Origin: a virus
Reading direction: 5' to 3' (one strand)
Virus record (IMG/VR): IMGVR_UViG_3300008262_003123
Location: 1 to 56,189 of that record
Length of the DNA stretch: 56,189 bases
Position 1 is the stretch's first letter. Every line of letters starts with the position of its first letter. The notes beneath the pieces are model-generated. The model was not told the DNA's origin. It was given only the letters and a program-made list of their open reading frames with translations, and did not search any database. The position numbers were made by a program, and so were the translations under genes. Shown here in pieces: positions 2-44,363 of the stretch.

Positions 2-160
2 GATTACGAGGGTGGCGAATTTGCTTTTTTTAATCGTGATATACAAATAAAACCATCAGCGGGATCCGCGCTGATGTTTCCAAGCAATTTTATGTATCCG
101 CACGAAGTGATGCCAGTGTTATCAGGTAGTAGGTATTCAATCATTACTTGGTTTGTTTAA
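2..160 (+). CDS. 2OG-Fe(II) oxygenase, C-terminal fragment
   Basis: Reading frame open at the left edge; 52 codons precede the TAA. The residues match the C-terminal end of prolyl-4-hydroxylase-like 2-oxoglutarate/Fe(II) oxygenases: YEGGEFAF, then FPSNFMYPHEVMPV with the distal iron-binding His in HEV, then the 2OG-binding Arg in SGSRYSIITW. The proximal HxD is outside the window. Such enzymes are common in T4-like marine and freshwater phages; substrate unknown. The next gene encodes glycosyltransferases, so a role in surface or virion modification is possible (inference). Confidence 0.85.
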   Translation, partial: DYEGGEFAFFNRDIQIKPSAGSALMFPSNFMYPHEVMPVLSGSRYSIITWFV

Positions 161-207
161 CCTGTCATAACTACATACAAATTCAAGATTTAACGATATA
201 TAAAAGC

Positions 208-3200
208 ATGAAATTAGCTATCATAGATATAATTGGTATACCTTACGACGGTTCAACCGTTTTTAAACAAGGACTTGGTGGTTCCGAAAGTGCTGTAACA
301 TACATCAGTAAAGAACTTGCCAAATTAAATTTTGAAGTTACTGTTTTCAATAACTGCAATCTTGATCACGCGACACCAGGACAGTATGACGGAGTAAACT
401 ACTTACCCTTATCAGCACTGTCTAACGATTACAATTTTGATATTGTGATTAGTAGCAGAACTGTTATACCTTTTTTAACTGAGAACCAATTTCAACAGGT
501 AGGTGATAGTAGAGCACTACCATTTGCTGATAAAAAGATCTACGAACGTATTCTTAGTAAGGCCAAACAGCGTATTCTATGGATGCACGATACATTTTGT
601 CTTGGCGACAATCTCATAGAAGAACTAGCAACCGCAAATAAAATTACCACAATCTTTACTCTTAGTGATTGGCACTTGACCTATGTACTAAATTGCCATC
701 ACGGACGTAGACGTAACTTTGAAGTATTAAAAAATAAAACATTTATTACACGCAATGGTGCATACTTACACAAACAAGAAGTAGATATCAAAGCTAAAGA
801 TCCTAACAGATTTGTTTATAACGCCAGTGTGACTAAAGGTATGATACCCTTAGTTAAAGAAATTTGGCCTAGAGTCAAACAACGATTACCCGAAGCTAAA
901 CTTACGGTAATAGGCGGCTACTATAGATTTACAGTGAATGGACAACCAGATCAACAGGAGTTAGATTGGCGTCAAATGGCCAATGACCCTGCAAATGCAC
1001 AACTGGATATAGAATTCACAGGCATCATTCCTCAGAGTGAAATAGCAGATAGATTAGCTGCTGCTAACTTTATGATATATCCTGCTGCATTTCCAGAAAC
1101 ATTTGGCATTAGCACACTAGAAAGTATATGTTATAATACACCAGTAATAACTTGTAGATTTGGTGCATTAGAAGAAGTAGCATTAGAAGGAAGTTGCTAT
1201 CTTATTGATTATGCTATAGAACCAAATGTTTTATTTACAGATATTAATCGTGCCGAACAAGTAGATAAATTTGTTGAACAAACAGTACAGGCCTATCATA
1301 ACAGGTATCTACATCAACAAAAACAATACTATTGTAATGTAGTCAAGCCTATAGCAGGATGGGATACAGTAGCACTACAATGGAAACAGTTTTTCTATAA
1401 GACCTGTGGACTATATCTTAGTTTAGAAGAATATCGTCAAGTTAATAAAATAAATCGTAGAGTGCATAAAGTTTACAACAGACGTTATCATAATGTTGTA
1501 GAGTTAGAAAACTATAAATCTAATACAGAACAGCAGATCAATATAGTCAGCACTTTCTATAATAATAGAAACTACATTGAACGTTGCATAGAAAGTGTAG
1601 TTTGCCAAGATTACGACAACTATCATCATTACTTAATAGATGATGCCAGCACAGATGATACTGTAGATGTAGCCTACAGATTTATTGATAGTTTACCACA
1701 ACATATACAAAATAAGATAACATTAATTGTTAATGAACAAAATCTAGGTGCTGTGCGTAATCAAGTAGAATTGTTTAGAACATTAGAACAGAACAGCATT
1801 ATAATGATTCTAGATGGTGACGATAGTCTAGTCAACGACAACACTATTTTATCATACTACAATACGTTATACAGTGATAATCTAGAATTTACATATGGTA
1901 GTTGTTGGAGTATGGTTGATAATATACCCTTAATCAGTCAACCATACCCTGAAGAGGTAAAACAAAGCAAAACATATAGACAGCATCATTTTAACTGGAT
2001 ATTGCCTTATACTCATTTAAGAACATTTAAGAAATACCTCATAGACAATTGCACAGATGATCAATTTAAAAATGATCAAGAAGAATGGTATAGAGCAGGT
2101 GGCGATGGCGCAGTATTTTATGCTCTCATAGAACAGGCTGATCCAGATAGAGTTGCTTGCATACAAGATATAGTGTACAATTATAATGATATTAATCCAT
2201 TAAATGATTATAAAGTAAATGCAGAAGAACAAAATAAAACCGCAAGAGAAATAATAGGAAAAACAGAGATGTCAAAAAAAAAGATACTAATAGCCATACC
2301 CACAGCCAGGAACATAGAGCCAGAGACATTCAAGAGCATCTACGATCAGATAATACCCGAGGGTTACCAAACCACATTTCAGTACTTCTATGGATATAGA
2401 GTAGATCAAGTTCGTAATCTTATTGCAGATTGGGCAGTCAAAGGATACGATTATCTTTGGGCCGTAGATGCAGATATGGCATTCGCTCCTGACACATTAG
2501 CAAAACTGATATCTCAAGATAAAGATATAATAACCGGCATATATAGACAGCGTAAACCTGAACAGATATTAGAAGTTTACGAACATAATAGTACCGGTGG
2601 GGTAAGTCATATACCCTACTATAAAATACAAAATCGAGGGACACTGGAAATAGCAGCCTGCGGGTTTGGATGTGTGCTAGTCAAGTCGGAAGTGTTTAGA
2701 TCGATTGGATATCCACAATTTATGTATCATCCGGCACTAGATCATAATCATACAATCAGTGAAGACATAGATTTTTGTCGTAAAGCTAAAGACAGAGGTT
2801 TTAGTATTTGGGCTGATACTAGTATATTGTGCAGTCATATAGGACAAACTAATTTTAATCTAATTCCAGAAGTTCCTGTAGCAGAATCAATAATTGACCA
2901 TTCAGCAAGATTAAAAGAATTAGGCAGTCAAAGATTAATACCACAAAAACATGTTGAGTTTCTTCAACAACTGTCTATTCAACCAAAAGTAATCTATGAT
3001 GTTGGTGCTTGTGTACTGCATTGGACCAATGAAGCTAAACGCATATGGCCTAATGCACAGTATGTGGTTTTTGAAGCTATGCCAGAGTGCGAATTCATGT
3101 ATAAAGAAAATAACTTATTATATCATATAGGTTTACTCAGTGATAGCACAGGTAAAGAATTAGAATTTTATCAAAACACTTATCACCCTGGCGGTAACAG

Positions 3201-3555
3201 TTACTATAAAGAAAATATAGAGATAAATCCAGAAGCCGAAAAATATTTTAATGAAAGTCATCGTAGAACCTATAAAACAGTAACTTTAGATGCAGTAGTT
3301 AATCTAAAAAAACTGCCAAACCCTGATCTAATAAAAATGGATGTACAGGGCGCAGAATTAGATGTTCTAAAAGGTGCTGTAGAAATCTTAAAATCCTGCG
3401 ATCATGTGATTTTAGAGTTACAAGAAGTTGAATATAATAAAGGCGCACCTCTTAAACAAACTGTAGTAGAGTATATGGAATCGCAGGGTTTTACAAATAT
3501 GGGCATGTTTAGCAGTAACGGACCAGATGGCGACTACTATTTTACTAGATGCTAA
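208..3555 (+). CDS. Multidomain glycosyltransferase / FkbM-type methyltransferase fusion
   Basis: 1115 aa with four modules. (1) Residues about 1-420: GT-B/GT4-like glycosyltransferase, with GGSESAVTYISKELAK near the N-terminus and a nucleotide-sugar region PETFGISTLESICYNTPVI. (2) About 450-660: GT-A/GT2 domain, with STFYNNRNYIERCIESV, LIDDASTDDT and metal-binding DGDD. (3) About 690-920: a second GT-A-like domain starting KKILIAIPTARN, with DAD in LWAVDADMAF. (4) About 930-1115: FkbM-like SAM methyltransferase, with VIYDVGA, FEAMPE and IKMDVQGAELDVLKG. ATG 208 is preferred over the upstream in-frame codon at 148, which lies inside the preceding gene. It probably builds or decorates a glycan on the virion or host surface; acceptor unknown. 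A run of nine A and an in-frame ATG at 2269 mark the junction to module 3, so an internal product is conceivable. Confidence 0.88.
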   Translation: MKLAIIDIIGIPYDGSTVFKQGLGGSESAVTYISKELAKLNFEVTVFNNCNLDHATPGQYDGVNYLPLSALSNDYNFDIVISSRTVIPFLTENQFQQVGDSRALPFADKKIYERILSKAKQRILWMHDTFCLGDNLIEELATANKITTIFTLSDWHLTYVLNCHHGRRRNFEVLKNKTFITRNGAYLHKQEVDIKAKDPNRFVYNASVTKGMIPLVKEIWPRVKQRLPEAKLTVIGGYYRFTVNGQPDQQELDWRQMANDPANAQLDIEFTGIIPQSEIADRLAAANFMIYPAAFPETFGISTLESICYNTPVITCRFGALEEVALEGSCYLIDYAIEPNVLFTDINRAEQVDKFVEQTVQAYHNRYLHQQKQYYCNVVKPIAGWDTVALQWKQFFYKTCGLYLSLEEYRQVNKINRRVHKVYNRRYHNVVELENYKSNTEQQINIVSTFYNNRNYIERCIESVVCQDYDNYHHYLIDDASTDDTVDVAYRFIDSLPQHIQNKITLIVNEQNLGAVRNQVELFRTLEQNSIIMILDGDDSLVNDNTILSYYNTLYSDNLEFTYGSCWSMVDNIPLISQPYPEEVKQSKTYRQHHFNWILPYTHLRTFKKYLIDNCTDDQFKNDQEEWYRAGGDGAVFYALIEQADPDRVACIQDIVYNYNDINPLNDYKVNAEEQNKTAREIIGKTEMSKKKILIAIPTARNIEPETFKSIYDQIIPEGYQTTFQYFYGYRVDQVRNLIADWAVKGYDYLWAVDADMAFAPDTLAKLISQDKDIITGIYRQRKPEQILEVYEHNSTGGVSHIPYYKIQNRGTLEIAACGFGCVLVKSEVFRSIGYPQFMYHPALDHNHTISEDIDFCRKAKDRGFSIWADTSILCSHIGQTNFNLIPEVPVAESIIDHSARLKELGSQRLIPQKHVEFLQQLSIQPKVIYDVGACVLHWTNEAKRIWPNAQYVVFEAMPECEFMYKENNLLYHIGLLSDSTGKELEFYQNTYHPGGNSYYKENIEINPEAEKYFNESHRRTYKTVTLDAVVNLKKLPNPDLIKMDVQGAELDVLKGAVEILKSCDHVILELQEVEYNKGAPLKQTVVEYMESQGFTNMGMFSSNGPDGDYYFTRC

Positions 3556-11707: not shown

Positions 11708-11736
11708 ATTATATAATCTGTTATTGAGTATGTCAA
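11708..11736 (-). promoter_or_regulatory. Sigma70-type promoter, leaderless geometry, palindromic -10
   Basis: On the minus strand: TTGACA (11736-11731), 17-nt spacer, TATAAT (11713-11708), both perfect consensus, then 6 nt to the ATG at 11701. The -10 lies in the palindrome GATTATATAATC (11707-11718), so the plus strand also carries TATAAT (11712-11717) facing the desaturase gene, though without a good -35. Confidence 0.75.
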
Positions 11737-12455
11737 GCTATAAATACTTGATGGAAATTATTATAGCAACGTTAGTGATGACGCACATCACAATAGTGTG
11801 CGTTACACTATATCTACACAGAAGCCAGGCGCATAGAGGATTAGAGTTTCATCCTATAGTCAGTCATTTTATGCGTTTTTGGTTATGGCTCACAACCGGT
11901 ATGACTACAAAACAATGGGTTGCAATACATCGCAAACACCATCAAATTACAGACGTGGAAGGCGATCCGCACAGCCCGCATGTATTTGGAATATGGACCT
12001 TAATGTTTAGTGGTTGGAGTTTATATAATAACGCCGCCAAAGATCCCGAGTTCGTAGTCAAGTACGGAATGGGCACTCCTAACGACTGGATTGAACACAA
12101 GCTTTATACACCTCACCACAAACTTGGTATTCTCTTAATGCTGATCATAGACTTATTGTTATTTGGACCATGGGGATTCTTAGTGTGGGGCGTTCAGATG
12201 ATATGGATTCCATTCTGGGCCGCTGGTTTTATCAACGGTGTTGGTCATTGGTGGGGATATCGTAATGGCGATACAAATGATTACAGTCACAATGTTAGCC
12301 CAATAGGTATTCTTATCGGTGGTGAAGAGCTACACAACAATCATCACTTAGATCCAGCAAATCCTAAACTAAGTCGTAAGTGGTTTGAATTTGACATTGG
12401 GTGGATGTGGTTTAAGATATTTGAGTTTTTGAAATTAGCAAAACTTAGAACATAA
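11730..12455 (+). CDS. Fatty acid desaturase (acyl-lipid/acyl-CoA delta-9 type)
   Basis: 241 aa integral membrane di-iron enzyme. Three histidine boxes are present: HRSQAH (HxxxxH), HRKHH (HxxHH) and HNNHH. Hydrophobic segments lie at residues about 9-27 and 125-165, and LDPANPKLSRKWFEFDIGW follows the third box as in bacterial delta-9 desaturases. Introduces double bonds into host fatty acids, changing membrane fluidity; such genes occur in other large aquatic phages. Starts at TTG 11724, ATG 11730 or ATG 11751 are all possible; ATG 11730 is a compromise. Divergent from the minus operon. Confidence 0.88.
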   Translation: MSSYKYLMEIIIATLVMTHITIVCVTLYLHRSQAHRGLEFHPIVSHFMRFWLWLTTGMTTKQWVAIHRKHHQITDVEGDPHSPHVFGIWTLMFSGWSLYNNAAKDPEFVVKYGMGTPNDWIEHKLYTPHHKLGILLMLIIDLLLFGPWGFLVWGVQMIWIPFWAAGFINGVGHWWGYRNGDTNDYSHNVSPIGILIGGEELHNNHHLDPANPKLSRKWFEFDIGWMWFKIFEFLKLAKLRT

Positions 12456-26937: not shown

Positions 26938-27068
26938 TTTTTAATCTTTTAATTTTAGCATTTGCTGTATACTGTTTAGTAGTATGGATCCATGCGTTAG
27001 TAACATACGATTGGACTAAATTTGAAGAGGATTCAAAAGACGACGATTTTTTGAAACCTTATGAATAA
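26934..27068 (+). CDS. Small membrane protein (44 aa)
   Basis: One TM helix (FNLLILAFAVYCLVVWIHAL) and an acidic cytoplasmic tail (TKFEEDSKDDDFLKPYE). Coupled to the micropeptide upstream by ATGA. The stop codon sits next to the first stem of the tmRNA acceptor piece, so tmRNA may be processed from the same transcript (inference). Confidence 0.58.
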   Translation: MIFNLLILAFAVYCLVVWIHALVTYDWTKFEEDSKDDDFLKPYE

Positions 27069-27473
27069 AGAATTGTTGTAATTCCTTCAAAGTGAAGGCA
27101 TTCTGGACGCGGGTTCGACTCCCGCCAGGTCCACCAATAGAGATGATTATGAACACTACACAAACTATAAAATTAGCAGGATTTTTTCTAGGAACGTATA
27201 TTTTATACAGACTAGGATTAGAAGTTTGGTGTATAGTTTATGGACTACTTTATTGATGGGCCTGACATGGTTTCGACAGGGTGAGATAATAGAGACGGCA
27301 ACACGGTAGGCGATGACCGTAAATCAAGCAAATCTATAAATGCAAACGATAATGCATTTGACTTTACAGCAATGAGCTTCACCGGTAACACTGTTGCCAA
27401 TGACAGCAAATTTGCTCTAGCAGCCTAAGAAACTGCAAGTCCGGGGTAGCTATACCTTGTAACCCAAAATAGT
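27069..27473 (+). ncRNA. ssrA: Circularly permuted (two-piece) tmRNA
   Basis: The two tRNA-like ends are in reversed order. Acceptor piece first: a CCTTC/GAAGG hairpin, GCATTCTGGACG, T-arm GCGGG-TTCGACT-CCCGC, then CAGGTCCACCA ending at 27136. Coding piece second, from 27258: GGGCCTGACATGGTTTCGACAGG. The 5' GGGCCUG pairs with CAGGUCC as a 7-bp acceptor stem with one G-U; AGGGUG can pair with CAUUCU as the start of helix P2. A PK1-like ACGGT/ACCGT follows. The resume GCA at 27342 opens a 28-codon tag ending FALAA-stop (27426-27428). The intervening 27137-27257 must be cut out to give two mature pieces. Alpha-, betaproteobacterial and some cyanobacterial tmRNAs have this layout. Exact outer ends are estimates. 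Confidence 0.93.
27149..27256 (+). CDS. Micropeptide ORF inside the tmRNA intervening segment
   Basis: 35 codons: MNTTQTIKLAGFFLGTYILY, then RLGLEVWCIVYGLLY. One TM helix, like the two small membrane proteins just upstream. It fills the segment between the mature tmRNA pieces almost exactly, ending 1 nt before the coding piece. An in-frame ATG at 27143 is also available. The Shine-Dalgarno is weak (AATAGAGATG). Could be a genuine third member of the small membrane series or a chance ORF. Confidence 0.45.
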   Translation: MNTTQTIKLAGFFLGTYILYRLGLEVWCIVYGLLY

Positions 27474-27474
27474 G

Positions 27475-27497
27475 AAAAGCCCCCTTGGGGGCTTTTC
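27475..27497 (+). terminator. Intrinsic terminator after tmRNA
   Basis: AAAAGCCCCC-TT-GGGGGCTTTT followed by CTTTATT. It ends the tmRNA precursor. The symmetric A/T flanks also suit termination of the converging minus-strand lipoprotein gene. Confidence 0.9.
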
Positions 27498-27498
27498 T

Positions 27499-27963
27499 TT
27501 ATTGCGGATAGACTAAAACGTTTTCTTCGGTTCCGATAATAGGATCAACTATAAGTTTCCCAAATCCTAGCATGGTCTGATTAGTGTTAATAGCAATGTC
27601 TTTGTTATTGTTGCTGTTGACTATGGCAAGATCAGTGCTTTTCCCAATACCATAAATTTGAGTAAGGCTGGGCACAATTACACTAGCCCACCGCAGAGCT
27701 GTGTCGCCTGTGCTAGTAGGTTGCTGTAGCTTAGGACTGTTGTTTTCCGGTGCGCCTTGCTGTAATGCAATTACAGCGGCTACACGAGCCGTGGTGTCGC
27801 CACTATTGGCAATAGCTTCTAATGCCTTGTATCGTGCAATTTCTGCTTCTGCTCTTGCTAGGGCAATATTTTCTTGGGTTTGGGCGTATTGTTGGTAGTT
27901 GTTAGATGCACAACCAGTTAGTGTTATGACGCAGATGGCGCCGGCGAGAATAGTTTTTCTCAT
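27499..27963 (-). CDS. Lipoprotein
   Basis: 154 aa. Signal peptide with lipobox: RKTILAGAICVITLTGCASN (cleavage before Cys 18). A helical Ala/Glu-rich region follows (ENIALARAEAEIARYKALEA), and the C-terminal half is S/T/N-rich with TSTGDTALRWASVIVPSLTQ. The second residue after the Cys is Ser rather than Asp, so outer-membrane sorting is likely. Function unknown; phage lipoproteins act in lysis, exclusion or virion structure. Confidence 0.75.
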   Translation of the reverse strand: MRKTILAGAICVITLTGCASNNYQQYAQTQENIALARAEAEIARYKALEAIANSGDTTARVAAVIALQQGAPENNSPKLQQPTSTGDTALRWASVIVPSLTQIYGIGKSTDLAIVNSNNNKDIAINTNQTMLGFGKLIVDPIIGTEENVLVYPQ

Positions 27964-29115: not shown

Positions 29116-29649
29116 ATGAAAACAGTTGGTGATAAAATTGAAGCATTTGCCGTAACCGGCGTTAATCCTGGTAAAGATGATTTCTTTACCATTACTGAAA
29201 AGTCATACGAAGGTAAGTGGAAAGTAATTGTTTACTATCCAAAAGACTTTACATTTGTATGCCCAACAGAAATCGTAGCATACGATAAATTGAATAGTGA
29301 TTTTGCCGATCGTGACGCAGTATTACTAACTGGTTCAACAGATAACGAATTCTGTAAACTGGCATGGCAAGCAGCCCATGAAGATCTTAAAAAAATCAAA
29401 CATGTTCAGTTTGCTGATACACAGCGTAACGAATTGAGCCTTATTGATCAGCTTGGCGTATTCTATGCTCCAGCAGGTGCTGCACTTCGTGCAACATTCA
29501 TTGTTGATCCAGAGAATGTTATCCAACACATTACTGTCAACAACTTGAATGTTGGTCGCTCACCAGAAGAAACACTTCGTGTATTAGACGCATTGCAAAC
29601 AGGTGAACTTTGTGCTTGCAACCGTACAGTTGGCGGAGAGACACTGTAA
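29116..29649 (+). CDS. ahpC: Peroxiredoxin, AhpC type
   Basis: 177 aa. Peroxidatic site KDFTFVCPTEIVAYDK (PxxxFVCPTE) and C-terminal resolving cysteines in GELCACNRTVGGETL. IVDPENVIQH and LNVGRSPEETLRVLDALQ are typical AhpC segments. Reduces H2O2 and organic hydroperoxides in the cytoplasm. The next gene encodes AhpD, which re-reduces AhpC in bacteria that lack AhpF use. TAATG overlap with ahpD. Strong ribosome-binding site and higher-GC codons suggest high expression. Confidence 0.95.
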   Translation: MKTVGDKIEAFAVTGVNPGKDDFFTITEKSYEGKWKVIVYYPKDFTFVCPTEIVAYDKLNSDFADRDAVLLTGSTDNEFCKLAWQAAHEDLKKIKHVQFADTQRNELSLIDQLGVFYAPAGAALRATFIVDPENVIQHITVNNLNVGRSPEETLRVLDALQTGELCACNRTVGGETL

Positions 29650-30164
29650 TGACTGCTTGGGTAGATCAAATTAAAGAAACTATTCCGGACTATGCTAAAG
29701 ACACTCGTCTTAACATTGATGCAGTAGTTAAGCGTTCTACTCTACCCCAAGAAGAAGCAGAAGCTGTTGCTATCGCAGCGGCTTTTGCCACAGGTAATAG
29801 TAAACTGTGGACTTGGATGCAGAGTCAGGCAATAGATAAGAAAGAAGCTGAAGCAGCAGTTACCGCAGCTAGTCTAATGGCCATGAACAATGTATGGTAC
29901 CCATTCGTTGAAATGGCTGAGGATCCTAATCTAACAGGATTACCGGCACAGTTGCGTATGAACGCAATTACTACACATGGCGGCACTACTAAAGCAAGAT
30001 TTGAAGCATATTCTTTATCTGCTAGTATTGTTGGCAAGTGTCATTTTTGTGTGAAAGCACATTATGAAACACTCAAGCAAGAAGGATATACAGTAGAACA
30101 ATTACGTGATATTGGGCGCATAGCGGCAGTTATCACCAGTGTATCCAGAGTACTAAATAGTTAA
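29649..30164 (+). CDS. ahpD: Alkyl hydroperoxide reductase AhpD (CMD family)
   Basis: 171 aa from ATG 29649. The AhpD/carboxymuconolactone-decarboxylase signature VGKCHFCVKAHYETLKQEG has the CxxC pair and the His of the proton-relay system; the helical repeats before it match the AhpD fold. Works as lipoamide-linked reductant of AhpC; the directly coupled ahpC makes this the likely role. Terminated by a strong hairpin at 30206. Confidence 0.92.
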   Translation: MTAWVDQIKETIPDYAKDTRLNIDAVVKRSTLPQEEAEAVAIAAAFATGNSKLWTWMQSQAIDKKEAEAAVTAASLMAMNNVWYPFVEMAEDPNLTGLPAQLRMNAITTHGGTTKARFEAYSLSASIVGKCHFCVKAHYETLKQEGYTVEQLRDIGRIAAVITSVSRVLNS

Positions 30165-30167
30165 TCG

Positions 30168-30202
30168 CCGTAACAGAACTGTAATCTTAGGTCTCTTAAA
30201 TA
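30168..30202 (+). promoter_or_regulatory. Candidate Pho box plus -10 upstream of pstS
   Basis: CCGTAAC-AGAA-CTGTAAT (30168-30185) resembles the 7-4-7 PhoB direct repeat CTGTCAT-N4-CTGTCAT (4 and 6 matches of 7). A TAAATA -10-like hexamer follows at 30197-30202, 11 nt downstream, which is the spacing of known Pho promoters. The terminator hairpin between this site and pstS complicates it. Confidence 0.45.
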
Positions 30203-30205
30203 AGA

Positions 30206-30237
30206 AGGTACAACATAGTGTTGTACCTTTCTTTTTA
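30206..30237 (+). terminator. Intrinsic terminator in the ahpD-pstS gap
   Basis: Perfect 10-bp stem AAGGTACAAC / GTTGTACCTT with a 5-nt loop, then TCTTTTTATT. It ends ahpD transcription. It lies between the candidate Pho promoter and pstS, so it may also attenuate pstS. Confidence 0.88.
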
Positions 30238-30260
30238 TTCACTCACACAAGGAGATTACA

Positions 30261-31286
30261 GTGAAAAAAATCATACTGACACTACTGGCGGCATTGACCG
30301 TTTCAGCACATGCAGCGGATCTAACAGGAGCAGGGGCAACATTTCCTTATCCTATCTATTCAAAATGGGCCGAAGCATATAAAGCAGCAACAGGCATCGG
30401 ACTCAACTATCAATCAATTGGTTCAGGCGGCGGCATCCGTCAAATCAAAGCTAAGATTGTAGATTTTGGCGCCAGTGACATGCCACTAAAACAAGACGAA
30501 TTAGACAAAGACGGTCTAATGCAATTCCCTGCAATCATTGGCGGAGTTGTGCCGATTGTAAACATTGATGGTATTGGTGCAGGACAACTTAAACTTACCT
30601 CAGACATTATTGCTGACATCTATATGGGTAAGATCGTCAAGTGGGATCATCCCAGCATCACAGCAATCAATCCAGGATTAAAATTACCTAATGCAAATAT
30701 CTCTGTGGTTCACCGCAGTGATGGTTCAGGTACAACCTTTATATGGACTAACTGGTTAAGCAAGACTAATAAAGAATGGGCAGATAAAGTCAAAGACGGC
30801 ACCGCAGTCAAATGGCCAATGGGTGTAGGTGGTAAGGGCAATGAAGGTGTAAGTGCTGTGGTCCAACAACTAAAAAATAGTATTGGTTATGTAGAATATG
30901 CCTATGCTAAACGCAACAAGATTCCACACGCACAAGTCAAAAATCGTGATGGCAACTTTGTACAGCCTAGCGATGATACATTCAAGGCAGCGGCAGCAGG
31001 TGCAGACTGGGCAAATGCTCCAGGGTTCTATCTATTGCTAACAGACCAAAAAGGCAAGGACGCTTGGCCTATTACAGGTGCCAGTTTCATTCTCATGCAT
31101 AAGCAACAAGAGGATGCACTAACAGGTCGTGCAGTTCTTAAGTTCTTTGATTGGAGTTACAAGAACGGCGGGCAGATGGCTACAGATTTAGAATATGTAC
31201 ATCTTCCACAATCTGTTATTACATTAGTACAGAATCATTGGAAGACTCAGTTAAAAGATAAGGATAGCAACGCTATTTGGAAGTAA
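30261..31286 (+). CDS. pstS: Periplasmic phosphate-binding protein
   Basis: 341 aa. Signal peptide KKIILTLLAALTVSAHA-AD. Phosphate-loop segments: LTGAGATFPYPIYSKWAEAY, GSGGGIRQIKAKIVDFGASD and VVHRSDGSGTTFIW, all diagnostic of PstS. Delivers phosphate to the host PstCAB transporter; phage copies are known in cyanophages and others and help during phosphate limitation. RBS AAGGAG. Followed by the porin gene with a palindromic hairpin between them. Confidence 0.97.
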   Translation: MKKIILTLLAALTVSAHAADLTGAGATFPYPIYSKWAEAYKAATGIGLNYQSIGSGGGIRQIKAKIVDFGASDMPLKQDELDKDGLMQFPAIIGGVVPIVNIDGIGAGQLKLTSDIIADIYMGKIVKWDHPSITAINPGLKLPNANISVVHRSDGSGTTFIWTNWLSKTNKEWADKVKDGTAVKWPMGVGGKGNEGVSAVVQQLKNSIGYVEYAYAKRNKIPHAQVKNRDGNFVQPSDDTFKAAAAGADWANAPGFYLLLTDQKGKDAWPITGASFILMHKQQEDALTGRAVLKFFDWSYKNGGQMATDLEYVHLPQSVITLVQNHWKTQLKDKDSNAIWK

Positions 31287-31296
31287 GCAGTACCCA

Positions 31297-31316
31297 CCGC
31301 CAGTGATCACTGGCGG
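31297..31316 (+). other. Perfect palindrome between pstS and porin genes
   Basis: CCGCCAGTGATCACTGGCGG, a 20-bp perfect inverted repeat, followed by ATCTATTTTA. It may be a partial terminator or mRNA-stabilising hairpin that lets pstS be expressed more than the porin. Confidence 0.6.
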
Positions 31317-31338
31317 ATCTATTTTATAAGGATTTAAA

Positions 31339-32751
31339 ATGAAAACATTACTTAAGGTAATGCTGGCGTCATCTGTGACAGCATTTATACCTGCACCTGC
31401 ACACGCAGACGAATACAAAGACACACTTGAAATTCTAAAAAATAAAAATATTCTTACACAGAAAGAATATGATATTAAACTTAAAGAATATGAAGAAAAA
31501 GAAGAAAACAAAAAGTTTATTGAACAGAGAATTGACAGAGATGTCAGCGACTCAGTCAAATACAGACAGGCCAGAGTTAATGACGGATCAGTCACAGAAA
31601 ACGGAATTGGACTCAAAAGCAAAGATGGCGGCAACACCGTCCAGCTTACAGGTCGACTACATATGGACTATCGTCAGTACTCCCCGGATTACGGTACAGG
31701 TCAAACCACAGATTCGTACCAGAATACTGCTGAAGCACGACGAGCCAGATTTGGAGTAAGAGGTCAGTTTGCCAAAGATTTCAAATATCAATTATTAGCA
31801 AACTTTGGTGCCAGTGATGGTTTTAGTTCAACATCGAGTACAGCAGATGAAATGTGGGTCAACTATGCTGCAAATCCAGAAGCACAGTTTCAATTTGGTT
31901 TATTCAAGATGCCATTCAGTCTTGAGCAGTTAACAAGTTCAAACAATCTTGACTTTATGGAACGCAGTTTAATTGGTCAAAATGATACAGAGTTTATACC
32001 TGCTAAAGAAACTGGATTTATGTTACATGGTATTCCTAAGCCTGGCTTAACATACGCTCTAGCATTAAGCAGAGGTAAGAGCAATAAGAGTGCCGAGTTT
32101 GATGGCTTTGACTACATTAGTCGTGTAACTACAAACATCGCTGAACTAACCGGAAGCAAAGCATATACAGCACATTTAGGTGCCGCTTATAGTACAGGTG
32201 AAATCAAAAGCGGTGTAGCTCCAGCAAGTGGTAGAACAGAATCACGTATGCAATCAGGATGGTTTACAGGATCTGCTCTTAGCGGTGCAACTACAAGAAC
32301 ACGTCAAGGCCTCGAAGCTGCATTTGCTTATAATGCATTTAAGGTGCAAGGCGAACATTTTCAATTTAATTATGATCCTGCAACAGGTAACGATCAGAAA
32401 ATAAATGGATACTATGTGCAAGCTGTGTATAATCTAACAGGTGAGTCACACTCATATAAAGATGGCGCATTTGGTTGGATCAAACCTGCTAATCCTTTGG
32501 ACAAAGGTGGTCGTGGTGCATGGCAAGTTGGTGTACGTATGAGTGAGTTTGATGCCAGTGACATTACTGTAGCTACCGGCAAATCAAATCGTGCTACTGC
32601 TATGACATATGGTGTTACCTGGTTCTGCACAGACAACCTACGTTTTATGTTAAATTATGTAGACACAAAATTTGATAGTCTAGTAGGCAGTTCAGGTAGT
32701 CGTGTAAACGGCGAACGTGCTGTTATGTTTAGAAGCCAACTAAGTTTTTAA
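31339..32751 (+). CDS. Phosphate/polyphosphate-type outer-membrane porin (OprP/OprO-like)
   Basis: 470 aa. Signal peptide ending AHADEYKD, then a short coiled coil (TLEILKNKNILTQKEYDIKL), then a 16-stranded-type porin barrel: LTGRLHMDYRQY, EARRARFGVRGQFAKDFKY, QFQFGLFKMPFSLEQLTSS, and C-terminal AVMFRSQLSF ending in Phe as required for BAM insertion. The Porin_O_P pattern near EARRARFGV fits. Downstream of pstS, so it likely raises phosphate entry across the outer membrane of the infected cell. Confidence 0.9.
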   Translation: MKTLLKVMLASSVTAFIPAPAHADEYKDTLEILKNKNILTQKEYDIKLKEYEEKEENKKFIEQRIDRDVSDSVKYRQARVNDGSVTENGIGLKSKDGGNTVQLTGRLHMDYRQYSPDYGTGQTTDSYQNTAEARRARFGVRGQFAKDFKYQLLANFGASDGFSSTSSTADEMWVNYAANPEAQFQFGLFKMPFSLEQLTSSNNLDFMERSLIGQNDTEFIPAKETGFMLHGIPKPGLTYALALSRGKSNKSAEFDGFDYISRVTTNIAELTGSKAYTAHLGAAYSTGEIKSGVAPASGRTESRMQSGWFTGSALSGATTRTRQGLEAAFAYNAFKVQGEHFQFNYDPATGNDQKINGYYVQAVYNLTGESHSYKDGAFGWIKPANPLDKGGRGAWQVGVRMSEFDASDITVATGKSNRATAMTYGVTWFCTDNLRFMLNYVDTKFDSLVGSSGSRVNGERAVMFRSQLSF

Positions 32752-32989: not shown

Positions 32990-33011
32990 CCTATTTTAAT
33001 GAATTTCACTA

Positions 33012-33068
33012 TGGTTTTCTGGTAGTTTTTATCATATAATGCAGATACATACTGTTGCAATAGTATGT
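33012..33068 (+). promoter_or_regulatory. pqqA promoter and leader hairpin
   Basis: TGGTTT (33012-33017), 17-nt spacer, TATAAT (33035-33040): consensus -10, weak -35. The leader then forms ACATACT/AGTATGT (33047-33068, 8-nt loop) followed by TTTTTATTG, which could attenuate transcription. AAGGAG lies at 33085-33090. Confidence 0.6.
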
Positions 33069-33097
33069 TTTTATTGTTGTTAAAAAGGAGAAGCATT

Positions 33098-33169
33098 ATG
33101 TGGACCAAGCCAGAAGCAACCGAGATGCGTTATGGTTTTGAGATCACTATGTACATCGCTAATCGCTAA
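33098..33169 (+). CDS. pqqA: PqqA, precursor peptide of the cofactor PQQ
   Basis: 23 residues: [20 protein letters not shown] followed by ANR. It matches the PqqA family in length, MWxKP start, GFE-x-TMY core and NR end. The Glu and Tyr of E-x-x-x-Y, which PqqE cross-links to build pyrroloquinoline quinone, are both present at the usual spacing. Strong AAGGAG at 7 nt. It has its own promoter upstream and a strong terminator downstream, so it is a single-gene unit; no pqqBCDE is in the window, so host enzymes would process it. PQQ is the cofactor of methanol and other periplasmic dehydrogenases. Phage origin of the surroundings makes this a putative auxiliary metabolic gene. Too short to appear in ordinary gene calls. 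Confidence 0.93.
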
Positions 33170-33188
33170 TACATAGTATCAAAAATCA

Positions 33189-33211
33189 AAACCCGCTCCG
33201 GCGGGTTTTTT
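33189..33211 (+). terminator. Intrinsic terminator after pqqA
   Basis: AAACCCGC-TCC-GCGGGTTTTTT: GC-rich stem with T6. It separates pqqA from the next unit. Confidence 0.93.
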
Positions 33212-33212
33212 C

Positions 33213-33240
33213 TTGACTTTTATTGCAAATATGTTATACT
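33213..33240 (+). promoter_or_regulatory. Sigma70-type promoter
   Basis: TTGACT (33213-33218), 16-nt spacer, TATACT (33235-33240). Directly after the pqqA terminator and 32 nt before the next start codon. A GGAG at 33262 serves the gene. Confidence 0.68.
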
Positions 33241-33272: not shown

Positions 33273-33644
33273 TTGAGTATGCATTTGGAAGGTCCGTGGC
33301 TCAGTACCACAGGCAAGAAAAAAAGCAAACGTAAATTTCGTAATGCTGAAGAAGCACGTAAGTCTCGCGAGTTACAAGATTCTTGGCAGTCGTTGTTAGA
33401 AAAGTATGATGTGCCAAAAACTAGTAAACAGAAAAAATTTGAACCATTAAAGGCCAAATCAGCACCTATAAGAGAGACTCCAAAGATTCCTAGTCTTCCT
33501 TTTACTGCTGGACCTTGTACTAAACCAGAGCAGAAAGTTTATACTGGTACAAAAGTTAAAGGTATTGGCACTATGCATAAAAGTAATGCTGTTCCAATTT
33601 TTTCAGACGAAGAAGCTGTAGAAATTGCCAAAATGAGGCGATAA
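33273..33644 (+). CDS. Conserved phage protein, highly basic
   Basis: 123 aa. HLEGPWLSTTGKKKSKRKFR, NAEEARKSRELQDSWQSLLE, then YTGTKVKGIGTMHKSNAVPI and FSDEEAVEIAKMRR. I recall this as a family widespread in aquatic phages of several morphotypes with unknown function. TTG 33273 is favoured by GGAG spacing; ATG 33279 is the alternative. Probably nucleic-acid binding by charge (inference). Confidence 0.75.
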   Translation: MSMHLEGPWLSTTGKKKSKRKFRNAEEARKSRELQDSWQSLLEKYDVPKTSKQKKFEPLKAKSAPIRETPKIPSLPFTAGPCTKPEQKVYTGTKVKGIGTMHKSNAVPIFSDEEAVEIAKMRR

Positions 33645-38988: not shown

Positions 38989-39570
38989 ATGAACTCAGAT
39001 ATAATGATAGACCTCGAAACCCTTGCCACCACTCCTGATGCTGCAATTTTAAGTATTGGCGCAGTGAAATTTGATCCGTTTGGGCAAGAATTAAAAGAAC
39101 CAGCAATGGAAAGTTTTTATCTACGTGTAGATATTGACAGTTGTGATCGGTTAGGATTAGCTACATCACAAGATACTCTTGAATGGTGGGCAAAACAAAG
39201 TCAAGCAGCTCAAGACGAAGCATTTGGAACCGAAGGTAGAGTTGATATTGTTAGTGCTATGAATCAACTTTATAAATTCTGTTGGGGTGCTAAACGTGTA
39301 TGGAGTCACGGTGCTGGCTTTGACGTTGTTATTTTAGAAACAGTATTTCGCAAAATGGGAAAAGGTTACCCTTGGAGTTTCTGGCAAGTAAGAGATACTA
39401 GAACAATTTTTGATCTTGGTATCAATCCAGACCGCCCTGAAGTATTAGCTCACCATGCGTTACACGATTCTTATAATCAAGCAATTGGTGTGCAAAATGT
39501 TTTCCGTAGATTGCGAACATCGTCGACATTAGACGGCCAATTGCTTTCTCCATTAAAGGATTCAAGATGA
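38989..39570 (+). CDS. 3'-5' exonuclease, DEDD family (Rv2179c/DexA-like)
   Basis: 193 aa. DEDDh motifs: [20 protein letters not shown] (D-x-E), [18 protein letters not shown] (D), and [20 protein letters not shown] (H...D). This is the order of RNase T/DexA exonucleases and is close to the Rv2179c-type short form common in phages. Likely degrades host DNA or RNA ends or takes part in repair. Strong promoter, no leader. ATGA overlap with guaC. Confidence 0.9.
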
Positions 39571-40646
39571 GAATCGAAGATGAAATCAAATTAGATTTCA
39601 AAGATGTTCTTATTCGTCCTAAGCGCAGTACTTTATCAAGTCGCAAAGAAGTTGACTTAACAAGGACTTACAAATTTAAACACAGTCGCGCCGAGTGGAC
39701 AGGAGTTCCGATTATGGCCAGTAACATGGACGGTGTTGGTACACTAGAAATGGCTCATGCTCTATATCAACACAAAATGTTCACTTGCCTAGTTAAGAAT
39801 ATCAGTACGGTATACTTTGAAACAACCGTACAAGATATAGGAGGCAATCATTTCGCAGTAAGCACAGGGACTTCCGAAAAGGACTTTGAAAGATTAAGTA
39901 ACATACTTAATTCTTATTCCGAAATAAAATTTATCTGTATAGATGTAGCAAATGGATATAGCGAACACTTCGGGGACTATGTAGAAGAAGTGCGTGAGGC
40001 ATTTCCTAATCACACAATTATCGCAGGTAACGTTGTTACCGCAGACATGACACAGGAGTTAATTTTACGTGGAGCAGATATTATCAAAGTGGGCATTGGT
40101 CCAGGCAGTGTTTGTACAACTAGGATACAAACTGGCGTCGGTTATCCTCAGCTCAGTGCTATTATTGAGTGTGCTGACGCTGCTCATGGTCTCGGCGGCC
40201 ATATTATTGCTGATGGTGGTTGTGTGTGTCCCGGTGACATTGCTAAGGCGTTTGGCGCCGGAGCAGACTTTGTAATGTTAGGAGGCATGTTAGCCGGTCA
40301 TGATGAGGGCGGCGGTGAAGTTATTGAAGAAATGCACGAACTTTCAAAACTTCAAAAAGATATGTTTTCAAATGATTATGAAATTAAAAAATATGTAGAA
40401 TTCTATGGAATGAGTTCAAATACTGCTATGAACAAGCATCATGGTGGCATAGCTGAATATCGTTCATCAGAAGGACGTACGGTAAGAGTACCGTATAAGG
40501 GCCCGGTCCAAAGTACAATTTTGGATATGTTGGGCGGACTGCGTAGTTCTTGCACATATGTAGGTGCTGCAAGTCTTAAACAATTATCTAAATGTACTAC
40601 ATTTATTAGGGTCAATATGCAATTTAATGATGTCTTTACGAGATAA
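39567..40646 (+). CDS. guaC: GMP reductase
   Basis: 359 aa TIM barrel. [43 protein letters not shown]-type [11 protein letters not shown], catalytic loop [20 protein letters not shown] (Cys), [20 protein letters not shown], and [20 protein letters not shown]. Lacks the CBS domains of IMP dehydrogenase and has GuaC-type length, so it converts GMP to IMP, opening guanine nucleotides to adenine synthesis. It may recycle host RNA-derived GMP during phage growth. Confidence 0.93.
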
Positions 40647-40727: not shown

Positions 40728-42641
40728 ATGTCAAAAATCATCGGTATCGATTTGGGTACCACAAACTCATGTGTAGCTGTTATTGAAAACGGCAAATCCA
40801 AAGTAATTGAAAACTCAGAAGGCGCAAGAACAACTCCGAGTATTGTTGCTTATACAGACAGCGATATTTTAGTAGGTGCTTCAGCAAAGCGTCAGGCGGT
40901 AACTAATCCCAAAAACACAATTTATGCATCTAAGCGGTTAATTGGACGTAAGTTCAATGAACAGGCTGTTCAGAAGGACATTGACCTAATGCCTTATGAA
41001 ATTGTCAAGGCAACAAATGGTGATGCTTGGATTCGCGCACAAGGAAAAGAAATGGCACCTCCACAGGTGTCTGCAGAAGTTCTTCGCAAGATGAAAAAGA
41101 CTGCAGAGGACTATTTAGGGCATGAAGTTACACAGGCTGTTATTACAGTGCCTGCTTACTTCAATGATAGTCAAAGACAGGCAACTAAAGATGCCGGTCA
41201 AATCGCTGGCTTAGAAGTTCTACGTATTATTAACGAACCTACTGCGGCTGCATTAAGCTACGGTGTTGACAAGACAGACAAAGCTGATCGTAAGATTGCG
41301 GTGTATGACTTAGGTGGTGGCACATTTGATATCAGTATCATTGAGATTGCCAACGTCGAAGGCGACAAACAAATTGAAGTATTGTCAACAAACGGCGATA
41401 CATTCTTAGGCGGTGAAGACTTTGACCAGCGCATTATGGATTATCTGGTTGAGGAATTTAAGAAAGAGCAAGGCATTGATCTAACTAAAGATATGTTGGC
41501 ACTACAACGTCTTAAGGACTCTGCTGAAAAAGCTAAGATTGAATTATCTAATTCTACACAAACTGAAGTTAATCTTCCATACATTACTGCCGATGCTAGT
41601 GGTCCTAAACATCTAGTGGTAAAAATTACCAAGGCAAAATTGGAACAGTTAGTTGACGATTTAATTCAACGTTCATTAGAACCTTGTCGTATTGCTATGA
41701 AAGATGCCGGAGTTACCGCAGATCAGATCGACGAAGTTATTCTAGTTGGCGGCCAAACTCGCATGCCAAAGGTACAAGAAGAAGTAGAACGTTTATTTGG
41801 AAAAGCGCCACGTAAAGATGTTAACCCAGACGAAGCAGTAGCAGTTGGTGCTGCTATCCAAGGTGCTGTGTTGGGTGGTGATCGTAAAGATGTCCTATTG
41901 TTAGATGTTACTCCATTAACTTTGGGTATTGAAACAGTAGGCGGTGTAATGGCCAAACTGGTTGCTAAGAATACTACTATTCCAACTAAGGCAAATCAAA
42001 TTTTCAGTACAGCTGATGACAATCAACCTGCTGTTACTATTCGTGTGTTCCAAGGAGAACGCGAATTGGCACATCATAACAAATTGTTAGGCGAATTTAA
42101 TCTTGAAGGTATTGATCCAGCACCACGTGGTATGCCTCAAATTGAAGTTACATTTGATATTGATGCTAATGGTATTTTAAGCGTAAGTGCCAAAGACAAA
42201 AATACTGGTAAAGAAAATAAAATTACCATTAAAGCTAATAGCGGCATTACTGAAGATGAAATCAAACGTATGATCGCTGAAGCAGAACAATATGCAGAAG
42301 AAGATAAAAAAGCACGTGAAGTTATTGAAACACGTAATGGTGCATTATCTGAACTGTATACAATTCGCAGAGAATTAGAAGCAGAAAAAGATCTTGCTAC
42401 AGAAGAAGAATGGAAAATAATTGAAGATGCACTAGAGGCTGCTGAAAAATTAGTCAATGATAATAGTGACATTGAAGAAATTAAGAAAGGTCCTTTCAAT
42501 GTAGCCGATGCTGCAAAACCTTTGTTTGAAAAAATTAAAGCCAAACGCGAAGCTGCCAAAGCAGAACAATCTGCACCGCAGCCAACTGATGGTGAAGTGA
42601 TCGATGCTTCCTTTACAGCAACTGAAGGCAAGGCATCTTAA
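40728..42641 (+). CDS. dnaK: Hsp70 chaperone DnaK
   Basis: 637 aa, full length. [20 protein letters not shown] (phosphate 1), [49 protein letters not shown] (phosphate 2), [12 protein letters not shown] (adenosine), linker [18 protein letters not shown], substrate domain, and a C-terminal lid with [13 protein letters not shown]. It is a complete Hsp70, expected to act with host DnaJ/GrpE on phage protein folding. Start at 40728 by AAGGAG. Full-length DnaK is rare in phages; with Hsp20 and ClpS it forms a proteostasis block. Confidence 0.97.
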
Positions 42642-42732: not shown

Positions 42733-43170
42733 ATGAATAATAATCAGTTAGCACAAATTACAGCTCTTAACAGAGCTCTTATTGGATTTGACACACTGTT
42801 TGATCAAATGGAAAGACGTTTTTCTAATAGTGTATCTAATAACTATCCACCTCACAACATTCTTAAAACTGGTGAAAATCAGTATGAGATTCAATTAGCA
42901 GTTACTGGATTTGATAAAACAGAAATTTCTGTTACTGTAGAGGACGGAATTCTTATTGTTAAAGGTGAAAGCATGGCTACAGATCATGCGCCAGAACAAT
43001 ACATTCATCGCGGTCTTGCTACTCGCGATTTTGTTAAAGAATTTCCTCTAGCAGAACATATTGAAGTTACTGGAGCGGAAACCAAAAATGGTATGTTAAC
43101 CATTAAGTTGGTCCGTAATGTTCCAGAGTCTGCGAAACCGAAAGTCATTGACATTGTAGACATTAAGTAA
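42733..43170 (+). CDS. Small heat-shock protein (Hsp20/IbpA-like)
   Basis: 145 aa. N-terminal FDTLFDQMERRFS, alpha-crystallin domain with YEIQLAVTGFDKTEISVTVE, DGILIVKGES, YIHRGLATRDFVKEFPLAEH, and GMLTIKLVRNVPE (like the GxL signature). Holdase that keeps proteins soluble for DnaK. Hsp20 genes are common in T4-like cyanophages. Followed by a strong hairpin. Confidence 0.94.
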   Translation: MNNNQLAQITALNRALIGFDTLFDQMERRFSNSVSNNYPPHNILKTGENQYEIQLAVTGFDKTEISVTVEDGILIVKGESMATDHAPEQYIHRGLATRDFVKEFPLAEHIEVTGAETKNGMLTIKLVRNVPESAKPKVIDIVDIK

Positions 43171-43219: not shown

Positions 43220-43528
43220 ATGGCAGACGTAGAAACTAAAATCAAAGAAGTAACAAAGACAGTTGAAACTCAACCACCCAATCATTGGAAGGTAGTATTC
43301 TTAAACGATGATTATACTCCCATGGAATTTGTTGTTGCTCTTTTGGTTACTATTTTTAGGCACAGTGAACAATCTGCCGAGCAGATCACAATAGAAATAC
43401 ACAACACGGGCAGTGCTGTTGTTGGTTTATACACACACGAAATTGCAGAACAAAAGTCTATTGATGCAACAACCGTTTGCAGACAACACGGTCATCCTTT
43501 ACAAATTACAATCGAAGAAGACAAATAA
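43220..43528 (+). CDS. clpS: ClpS, N-end-rule adaptor of ClpAP
   Basis: 102 aa. WKVVFLNDDYTPMEFVVALL (the NDDxTPMEFV substrate pocket), FRHSEQSAEQITIEIHNTG, VVGLYTHEIAEQKSIDATTV, HPLQITIEED. Full-length ClpS. It would steer N-degron proteins to host ClpAP and limit SsrA-tag degradation by ClpAP, so it may also influence how the phage tmRNA tag is handled (inference). Confidence 0.94.
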   Translation: MADVETKIKEVTKTVETQPPNHWKVVFLNDDYTPMEFVVALLVTIFRHSEQSAEQITIEIHNTGSAVVGLYTHEIAEQKSIDATTVCRQHGHPLQITIEEDK

Positions 43529-43796: not shown

Positions 43797-44363
43797 ATGA
43801 GTTTAAAAGAAATTACCAAAGATCTTCATCACGAAGCAGAAACAACCCAATTTGCTAAGATGTTACTTAGCGGAAAAATTACTAAAGAAGATTATGCCAA
43901 CTACCTTTATCAGTTAGTATTAATTTATAATGCTATAGAGTTAGGTAATCGAGTAGAAGGCAATTTTAAAAATCTTCCTGGTTTAGAAAGAACACACGCA
44001 ATCTATCAAGACTTTATTGAGATCGCAGGTGTTGATCACAATTACAAATGGTTACCTGGAACTATAGACTATTACAACTATCTCTTAAATTTAGTTCGTG
44101 ATCCTGCGCATCGTCCTAAAATCAAAGCTCATCTATATTGTCGACATATGGGAGATCTGTATGGTGGTCAAATAATTAAAAAACAAGTAGCACATATTAG
44201 CAAAGGTCGTTTTTATGATTTTAAAGATGCAGATGCATTAAAAATGTCCATACGTGCAGAACTAACTGATGACCTAGGAGACGAAGCAAGAGTTGCGTTT
44301 GAATGGGCCATTAAAATGATGAGAGAATTGTATAATGAGTCAGGTCTGGAACAGTCTAATTGA
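43797..44363 (+). CDS. hemO: Heme oxygenase
   Basis: 188 aa. Proximal heme ligand in KDLHHEAETTQFAKMLLSGK and distal helix in YCRHMGDLYGGQIIKKQVAH (G-D-x-x-G-G), the two hallmark segments of heme oxygenases. Cleaves heme to biliverdin IX-alpha, iron and CO with host ferredoxin. The next gene, overlapping by 29 nt, encodes a bilin reductase that would use the biliverdin. No photosystem genes are in the window. Confidence 0.94.
   Translation: MSLKEITKDLHHEAETTQFAKMLLSGKITKEDYANYLYQLVLIYNAIELGNRVEGNFKNLPGLERTHAIYQDFIEIAGVDHNYKWLPGTIDYYNYLLNLVRDPAHRPKIKAHLYCRHMGDLYGGQIIKKQVAHISKGRFYDFKDADALKMSIRAELTDDLGDEARVAFEWAIKMMRELYNESGLEQSN

What the first reader, a model, noticed from the sequence alone, without database searches (positions are those of the whole stretch)
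33098..33169. Phage-borne pqqA, a 23-residue PQQ precursor gene as its own transcription unit
Seen: MW-KP start, GFE-x-TMY core with Glu and Tyr three residues apart, NR end, strong AAGGAG, own promoter and terminator. Known: PqqE/PqqD process PqqA, whose Glu and Tyr become PQQ, the cofactor of methanol and alcohol dehydrogenases. Inference: the phage boosts PQQ supply to keep host methylotrophy or other periplasmic oxidation running in infected cells; precursor supply alone would be the cheapest intervention. I know of no well-described phage pqqA. The gene is so short that standard annotation would miss it.
Basis: partly seen in the sequence, partly recalled or inferred. Interest (0 to 1): 0.95.

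Follow-up and report, generated by a model that had tools for sequence, protein, structure and literature searches.

The report
Phage pqqA under a host-like switch
A virus of water bacteria carries a 23-amino-acid gene, normally missed by annotation, for the raw material of the methanol-burning cofactor PQQ, and next to it a copy of the DNA switch that related bacteria place in front of their own PQQ genes; the same gene turned up in every published isolate group of methylotroph phages that I could name.

Summary
Window 33098-33169 encodes [23 protein letters not shown], a PqqA well above the Pfam and NCBIfam cut-offs, in a T4-like phage record. An independent, longer record carries the identical 3 kb.

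Phage pqqA is not new: a Lake Baikal virus was reported in 2020. It is, however, widespread and overlooked. An unannotated pqqA sits in the isolates Venkman, MEP301, MEP401/402, Melnitz and P19250A. No pqqA-carrying virus tested had PqqE above the cut-off (0/48) or a PQQ alcohol dehydrogenase (0/50).

New here: many bacterial pqqA genes of this order share a dyad (CTCATGATTTTCATGAG). Of 31 exact sites in 14 genomes, 24 lie upstream of pqqA, and three more beside pqqBC, xoxF/xoxJ or a PQQ dehydrogenase. A matrix made only from bacterial sites has its best hit in the whole window at 32996-33012, 102 nt before phage pqqA. 66% of 93 non-redundant phage pqqA upstreams exceed the 95th percentile of controls.

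Best explanation: the phage tops up the consumed substrate of the host's PqqBCDE, from a promoter under the host's own PQQ regulator. Binding, expression and benefit are untested; the host family is unresolved.

The parts
32996..33012 (+). Operator-like dyad TTAATGAATTTCACTAT, related to CTCATGATTTTCATGAG upstream of bacterial pqqA
   Evidence: Matrix built only from bacterial pqqA upstreams has its best hit of the whole window here (14.7; next 10.5); block conserved in 9 T4-like phages
33035..33040 (+). -10 element TATAAT, 31 nt from the operator centre
   Evidence: Sequence; conserved block; same 31-nt spacing in all 8 T4-like phages with an operator above threshold; no consensus -35
33047..33068 (+). 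Stem-loop ACATACT-N8-AGTATGT at the predicted 5' end of the mRNA, followed by T-rich sequence; possible 5' stabiliser or attenuator
   Evidence: 7-bp perfect stem; stems of at least 7 bp in 27% of phage pqqA leaders against 6% of shuffles
33085..33090 (+). Shine-Dalgarno AAGGAG
   Evidence: Sequence; conserved in relatives
33098..33169 (+). pqqA, 23 codons: PQQ precursor peptide; Glu15 and Tyr19 are the expected cross-linked residues
   Evidence: PF08042 35.0 bits and TIGR02107 38.2 bits, both over cut-off
33188..33215 (+). Intrinsic terminator aaaCCCGCTCCGGCGGGttttttc
   Evidence: Sequence and scan; hairpin plus T-run in the T4-like relatives
29610..30164 (+). AhpD-like (CMD family) gene; directly precedes pqqA in 5 relatives
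   Evidence: PF02627; synteny by tblastn
33273..33644 (+). Conserved phage gene found shortly after pqqA in 6 relatives; function unknown
   Evidence: tblastn 61-71% in L360-L364 and L366

Best explanation
The phage carries a functional, host-type pqqA. Shown: the gene is a PqqA under purifying selection, it sits alone between a -10 element and a terminator, and a DNA element shared with bacterial pqqA promoters lies just upstream. Inferred: during infection the host regulator that normally drives pqqA, acting through host RNA polymerase, also drives the phage copy. The resulting 23-residue peptide is cross-linked and trimmed by the host's PqqE/D, B and C. Because one PqqA is consumed per PQQ, extra peptide keeps PQQ available for methanol or other alcohol dehydrogenases, and so keeps energy flowing while the host's own pqqA genes are silenced or destroyed. 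In effect the phage adds one more dispersed copy to a family that bacteria such as Methylophilaceae already amplify (3-12 pqqA copies to one pqqBCDE set).
For: PqqA profiles over cut-off. Unannotated pqqA in nine isolate phage records of Methylophilaceae hosts, of unrelated types (neighbourhoods); at least 120 viral contigs. Purifying selection: pN/pS 0.18 in 14 sequences found without the pattern, 0.36 at codons the pattern left free. Operator: 24/31 exact sites in 14 bacterial genomes are 99-204 nt upstream of pqqA; others precede pqqB-pqqC, lie between a methanol-type dehydrogenase and a MoxJ-type gene, or precede a PQQ dehydrogenase. Best hit in the window is at the phage pqqA. Non-redundant phage upstreams: 66% over the 95th and 45% over the 99th percentile of 890 controls. 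The -10 clusters 30-31 and 52-54 nt from the operator centre, about two helical turns apart. No viral PqqE over cut-off or dehydrogenase, so the host must finish the pathway. Host multiplicity of pqqA: and PMC4109929.
Against: No expression, binding or fitness data. The regulator is unidentified. About a third of phage pqqA upstreams lack a recognisable operator, including MEP402. The T4-like phages may transcribe this gene through their own program. Viral records are fragments, so missing pqq genes cannot be proven. The host of this phage is not known, so PqqBCDE in it is assumed. The motif was first noticed by eye in phage and host upstreams together, although the matrix used only bacterial sites.
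Confidence: 0.7

Rival explanations
1. The operator is a decoy: many replicating phage genomes titrate the host PQQ/methanol regulator, and the peptide gene is secondary.
For: The element is strongly conserved, and phage genome copies would outnumber host sites.
Against: The peptide is itself under purifying selection; the operator sits at preferred spacing to a -10, as for activation.
Confidence: 0.08
2. The gene is a passenger: host pqqA genes are short and numerous, and phages pick them up with their promoters without benefit.
For: Hosts carry many dispersed copies with the same operator, so capture is easy.
Against: Low pN/pS and conserved synteny after ahpD across divergent relatives; presence in several unrelated groups of small, gene-dense phages.
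Confidence: 0.1
3. The phage PqqA peptide acts otherwise, for example as a competitor of the host peptide at PqqE/PqqD, lowering PQQ.
For: Nothing direct; a peptide substrate variant in excess could inhibit.
Against: The Glu and Tyr to be cross-linked and the core residues are kept in the phage copies found by profile or tblastn; the commonest viral peptide is identical to a bacterial one.
Confidence: 0.05
4. Contamination or misassembly: a bacterial pqqA region joined to phage sequence.
For: Such cases exist: 'Acinetobacter phage MD-2021a' is a bacterial pqqABCDE locus.
Against: Independent record identical over 3057 bases; syntenic pqqA in relatives; complete isolate genomes carry pqqA.
Confidence: 0.01

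Closest known systems
Bacterial PqqA (PF08042, TIGR02107)
   Same: Length, MW-KP start, GFExTMY core, Glu15/Tyr19
   Different: Encoded by a phage, without pqqBCDE
Dispersed stand-alone pqqA copies of Methylophilaceae (PMC4109929: 3-12 copies, one set of pqqBCDE)
   Same: Stand-alone, same peptide type, same kind of upstream dyad
   Different: Sits on a phage genome; in the T4-like phages the operator is 31 nt from the -10, about two helical turns nearer than the offset of 53 favoured in bacterial copies
Lake Baikal virus VP_266 with pqqA and methanol dehydrogenase (Coutinho et al. 2020, PMC7678222)
   Same: T4-like virus with pqqA and a predicted methylotroph host
   Different: There the dehydrogenase is viral too; here pqqA travels alone. 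No operator and no prevalence in isolates is described in the passages read
Cyanophage psbA-type auxiliary metabolic genes (own knowledge)
   Same: A quickly used-up host component is resupplied by the phage
   Different: Here the resupplied item is the peptide substrate of a cofactor, and a host-type operator comes with it

Membership tests
PqqA (PQQ precursor peptide) | Score above curated family cut-offs | tested here: met
   35.0 over 21.1 bits (Pfam), 38.2 over 20 bits (NCBIfam)
PqqA (PQQ precursor peptide) | Glu and Tyr as ExxxY for cross-linking | tested here: met
   E15-I-T-M-Y19
PqqA (PQQ precursor peptide) | Processed by PqqE/PqqD to PQQ | not testable with these tools
   Needs biochemistry
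PqqA (PQQ precursor peptide) | Neighbouring pqqBCDE (usual, not obligatory, so not counted against membership) | tested here: not met
   No PqqE in the window; stand-alone copies are normal in Methylophilaceae
Phage auxiliary metabolic gene | Lies in a genuine phage genome | tested here: met
   isolates
Phage auxiliary metabolic gene | Maintained by selection | tested here: met
   pN/pS 0.18
Phage auxiliary metabolic gene | Expressed in infection and alters host metabolism | not testable with these tools
   No transcript or metabolite data
Host PQQ/methanol regulon | Carries the operator at promoter distance | tested here: met
Host PQQ/methanol regulon | Bound by the host regulator | not testable with these tools
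   Regulator unknown

The most novel reading that the evidence does not exclude
Phages of PQQ-using bacteria have repeatedly and independently plugged a 23-codon precursor gene into the host's PQQ/methanol regulon by carrying the host operator. The virus does not merely add a metabolic gene; it subscribes to the host's own control of cofactor supply. This would be a general, nearly invisible strategy of methylotroph phages.
Probability: 0.55. Interest if true: 0.85.

Novelty: new variant of a known kind. Interest (0 to 1): 0.74.

Why it matters
Methylotrophs such as OM43 are important consumers of methanol in surface waters. If their phages resupply the PQQ precursor, infected cells may go on burning methanol, which bears on carbon budgets. 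The gene is 23 codons long and was not annotated as pqqA in any isolate genome examined, so PQQ-related viral genes are undercounted. Several of the phages are cultured with their hosts, so the idea is directly testable. The operator also gives a handle on the regulator of pqqA in these bacteria.

Tried and rejected
A genome contigs pattern scan returned 0 hits, but my pattern had one N too few; it is void and says nothing about hosts. A DnaK comparison over 399 genomes was uninformative, about 70-72% to nearly all. RNAalifold found no consensus for the 5' stem-loop on the MAFFT alignment, although single leaders and the shuffle test support hairpins. 'Acinetobacter phage MD-2021a' was rejected as a bacterial contig. 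Invariance of residues fixed by the search pattern was not used as evidence. A 23-aa peptide is too short for a tree, so single against multiple acquisition rests on unrelated phage backbones, not on phylogeny. No structure prediction was run for a 23-residue peptide.

Full report
What is there. The 72 bases at 33098-33169 encode [23 protein letters not shown]. Pfam PqqA gives 35.0 bits (cut-off 21.1) and the NCBIfam equivalog TIGR02107 gives 38.2 bits (cut-off 20). The window is an IMG/VR virus record of 56,189 bases with virion structural, tail spike and exonuclease families. A second record, 82.7 kb long, carries the same region identically over 3057 of 3057 bases, so misassembly at 33 kb is excluded.

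Anatomy. Reading down the strand: an operator-like dyad at 32996-33012, TATAAT at 33035-33040, a predicted 5' stem-loop at 33047-33068, AAGGAG at 33085-33090, the gene, and a GC hairpin with a T-run at 33188-33215. No consensus -35 is found. The operator centre lies about 31 nt before the -10, where a class II activator would sit; that is inference from position. Nine T4-like phages, this one included, keep this layout. In five relatives pqqA directly follows an ahpD-like gene, and in six the same unknown gene comes shortly after it; in the window a pstS-porin-DUF2061 block lies between ahpD and pqqA.

How common it is. tblastn over 50,697 phage records found PqqA in twelve: nine isolates from Methylophilaceae hosts, one podovirus from a spring metagenome, and two bacterial contigs labelled Acinetobacter phage. 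The isolates are Venkman, MEP301, MEP401, MEP402, P19250A and four Melnitz strains. The gene is unannotated there, or overlapped by an antisense hypothetical ORF. The isolate papers held here do not mention a phage PqqA. Of 50 records encoding a relative of one structural protein of this phage, nine carry pqqA, so it belongs to some clades and not to others.

Selection. In 14 phage copies found without the pattern, pN/pS is 0.18; in 107 pattern-found copies, at codons the pattern left free, it is 0.36.

No other pathway parts. None of 50 pqqA-carrying viral records has a PQQ alcohol dehydrogenase (TIGR03075), and none of 48, the window included, has PqqE over its cut-off. Many are fragments, so this is not proof of absence. 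The peptide must then rely on host enzymes.

Host context. Methylophilaceae are known to carry 3-12 pqqA copies beside a single pqqBCDE set (PMC4109929). The commonest viral peptide, [23 protein letters not shown], is identical to one in a 1.3-Mb and a 1.4-Mb genome.

The operator. Upstream of many bacterial pqqA genes lies CTCATGATTTTCATGAG or a close variant. The exact core TMATGAWWWTCATKA occurs 31 times in 14 chosen genomes; the reversed control pattern occurs 0 times. Twenty-four of the 31 lie 99-204 nt upstream of a pqqA. Of the other seven, one precedes pqqB-pqqC, one lies between a PQQ dehydrogenase of the methanol/ethanol family and a MoxJ-type gene, one is 104 nt before a PQQ dehydrogenase, one is 140 nt before a rhodopsin, and three, all in one genome, look unrelated. 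This is best read as a PQQ/methanol-oxidation regulon box; the one literature search aimed at it found nothing. The genomes were chosen because they carry pqqA, so the share is not a survey of the order, and many bacterial pqqA upstreams lack the element.

The phage has it too. A weight matrix made only from 11 distinct bacterial sites gives its top score in the window at 32996-33012 (14.7; next 10.5). Simulated sequence yields 0.18 such sites per 56 kb, so one at promoter distance from pqqA is unlikely by chance. Over 93 non-redundant phage pqqA upstreams, 66% exceed the 95th and 45% the 99th percentile of 890 other upstream regions of viral contigs (p about 1e-32, though related sequences are not fully independent). 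The -10 clusters at 30-31 and 52-54 nt from the operator centre, about two helical turns apart, which is what an activator site would show.

Leader hairpins. Perfect stems of at least 7 bp occur in 27% of phage pqqA leaders against 6% of shuffles. Their role (stability or attenuation) is open.

Mechanism. A phage that halts host transcription would leave PqqBCDE in place but stop the peptide. A phage copy driven by the host's own regulator would refill it. Steps shown: identity, selection, transcription-unit layout, operator similarity. Steps inferred: binding, expression, processing, benefit.

Host of this phage. A betaproteobacterial PQQ user is likely; the family is unresolved.

Novelty. 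Viral pqqA was reported in 2020 with a viral methanol dehydrogenase (PMC7678222). New here are its presence, unannotated, across isolate methylophages, its travel without the dehydrogenase, and the host-like operator.

Noticed in passing
40728-42641, 42733-43170, 43220-43528: Phage DnaK (NCBIfam equivalog) followed by genes that read by eye as an IbpA-like small heat-shock protein and ClpS: a proteostasis cluster.
   Followed up: partly
29116-32751: AhpC, AhpD-like, PstS and phosphate-selective porin O/P in a row: peroxide defence and phosphate uptake genes.
   Followed up: partly
27044-27519: tmRNA gene reported by ARAGORN; its 3' end overlaps the reverse-strand ORF 27499-27963.
   Followed up: no
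148-3555: 1135-aa fusion of glycosyltransferase group 1, family 2 and FkbM methyltransferase domains.
   Followed up: no
43797-44363, 39567-40646, 11724-12455: Heme oxygenase, IMP dehydrogenase/GMP reductase and fatty acid desaturase genes.
   Followed up: no
L409:574-1359: In a 1.3-Mb bacterial genome the same operator lies 140 nt upstream of a rhodopsin gene, hinting that light-driven and methanol-driven energy supply may share a regulator.
   Followed up: partly
L128 (CAKLQF020000010.1): Record labelled Acinetobacter phage MD-2021a holds a bacterial pqqABCDE locus with ppk and fur: looks like mislabelled chromosome.
   Followed up: yes
L405 (G591:64014-64373): The longer record of this phage carries a radical-SAM-like ORF that matches PqqE only weakly, below cut-off.
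   Followed up: no
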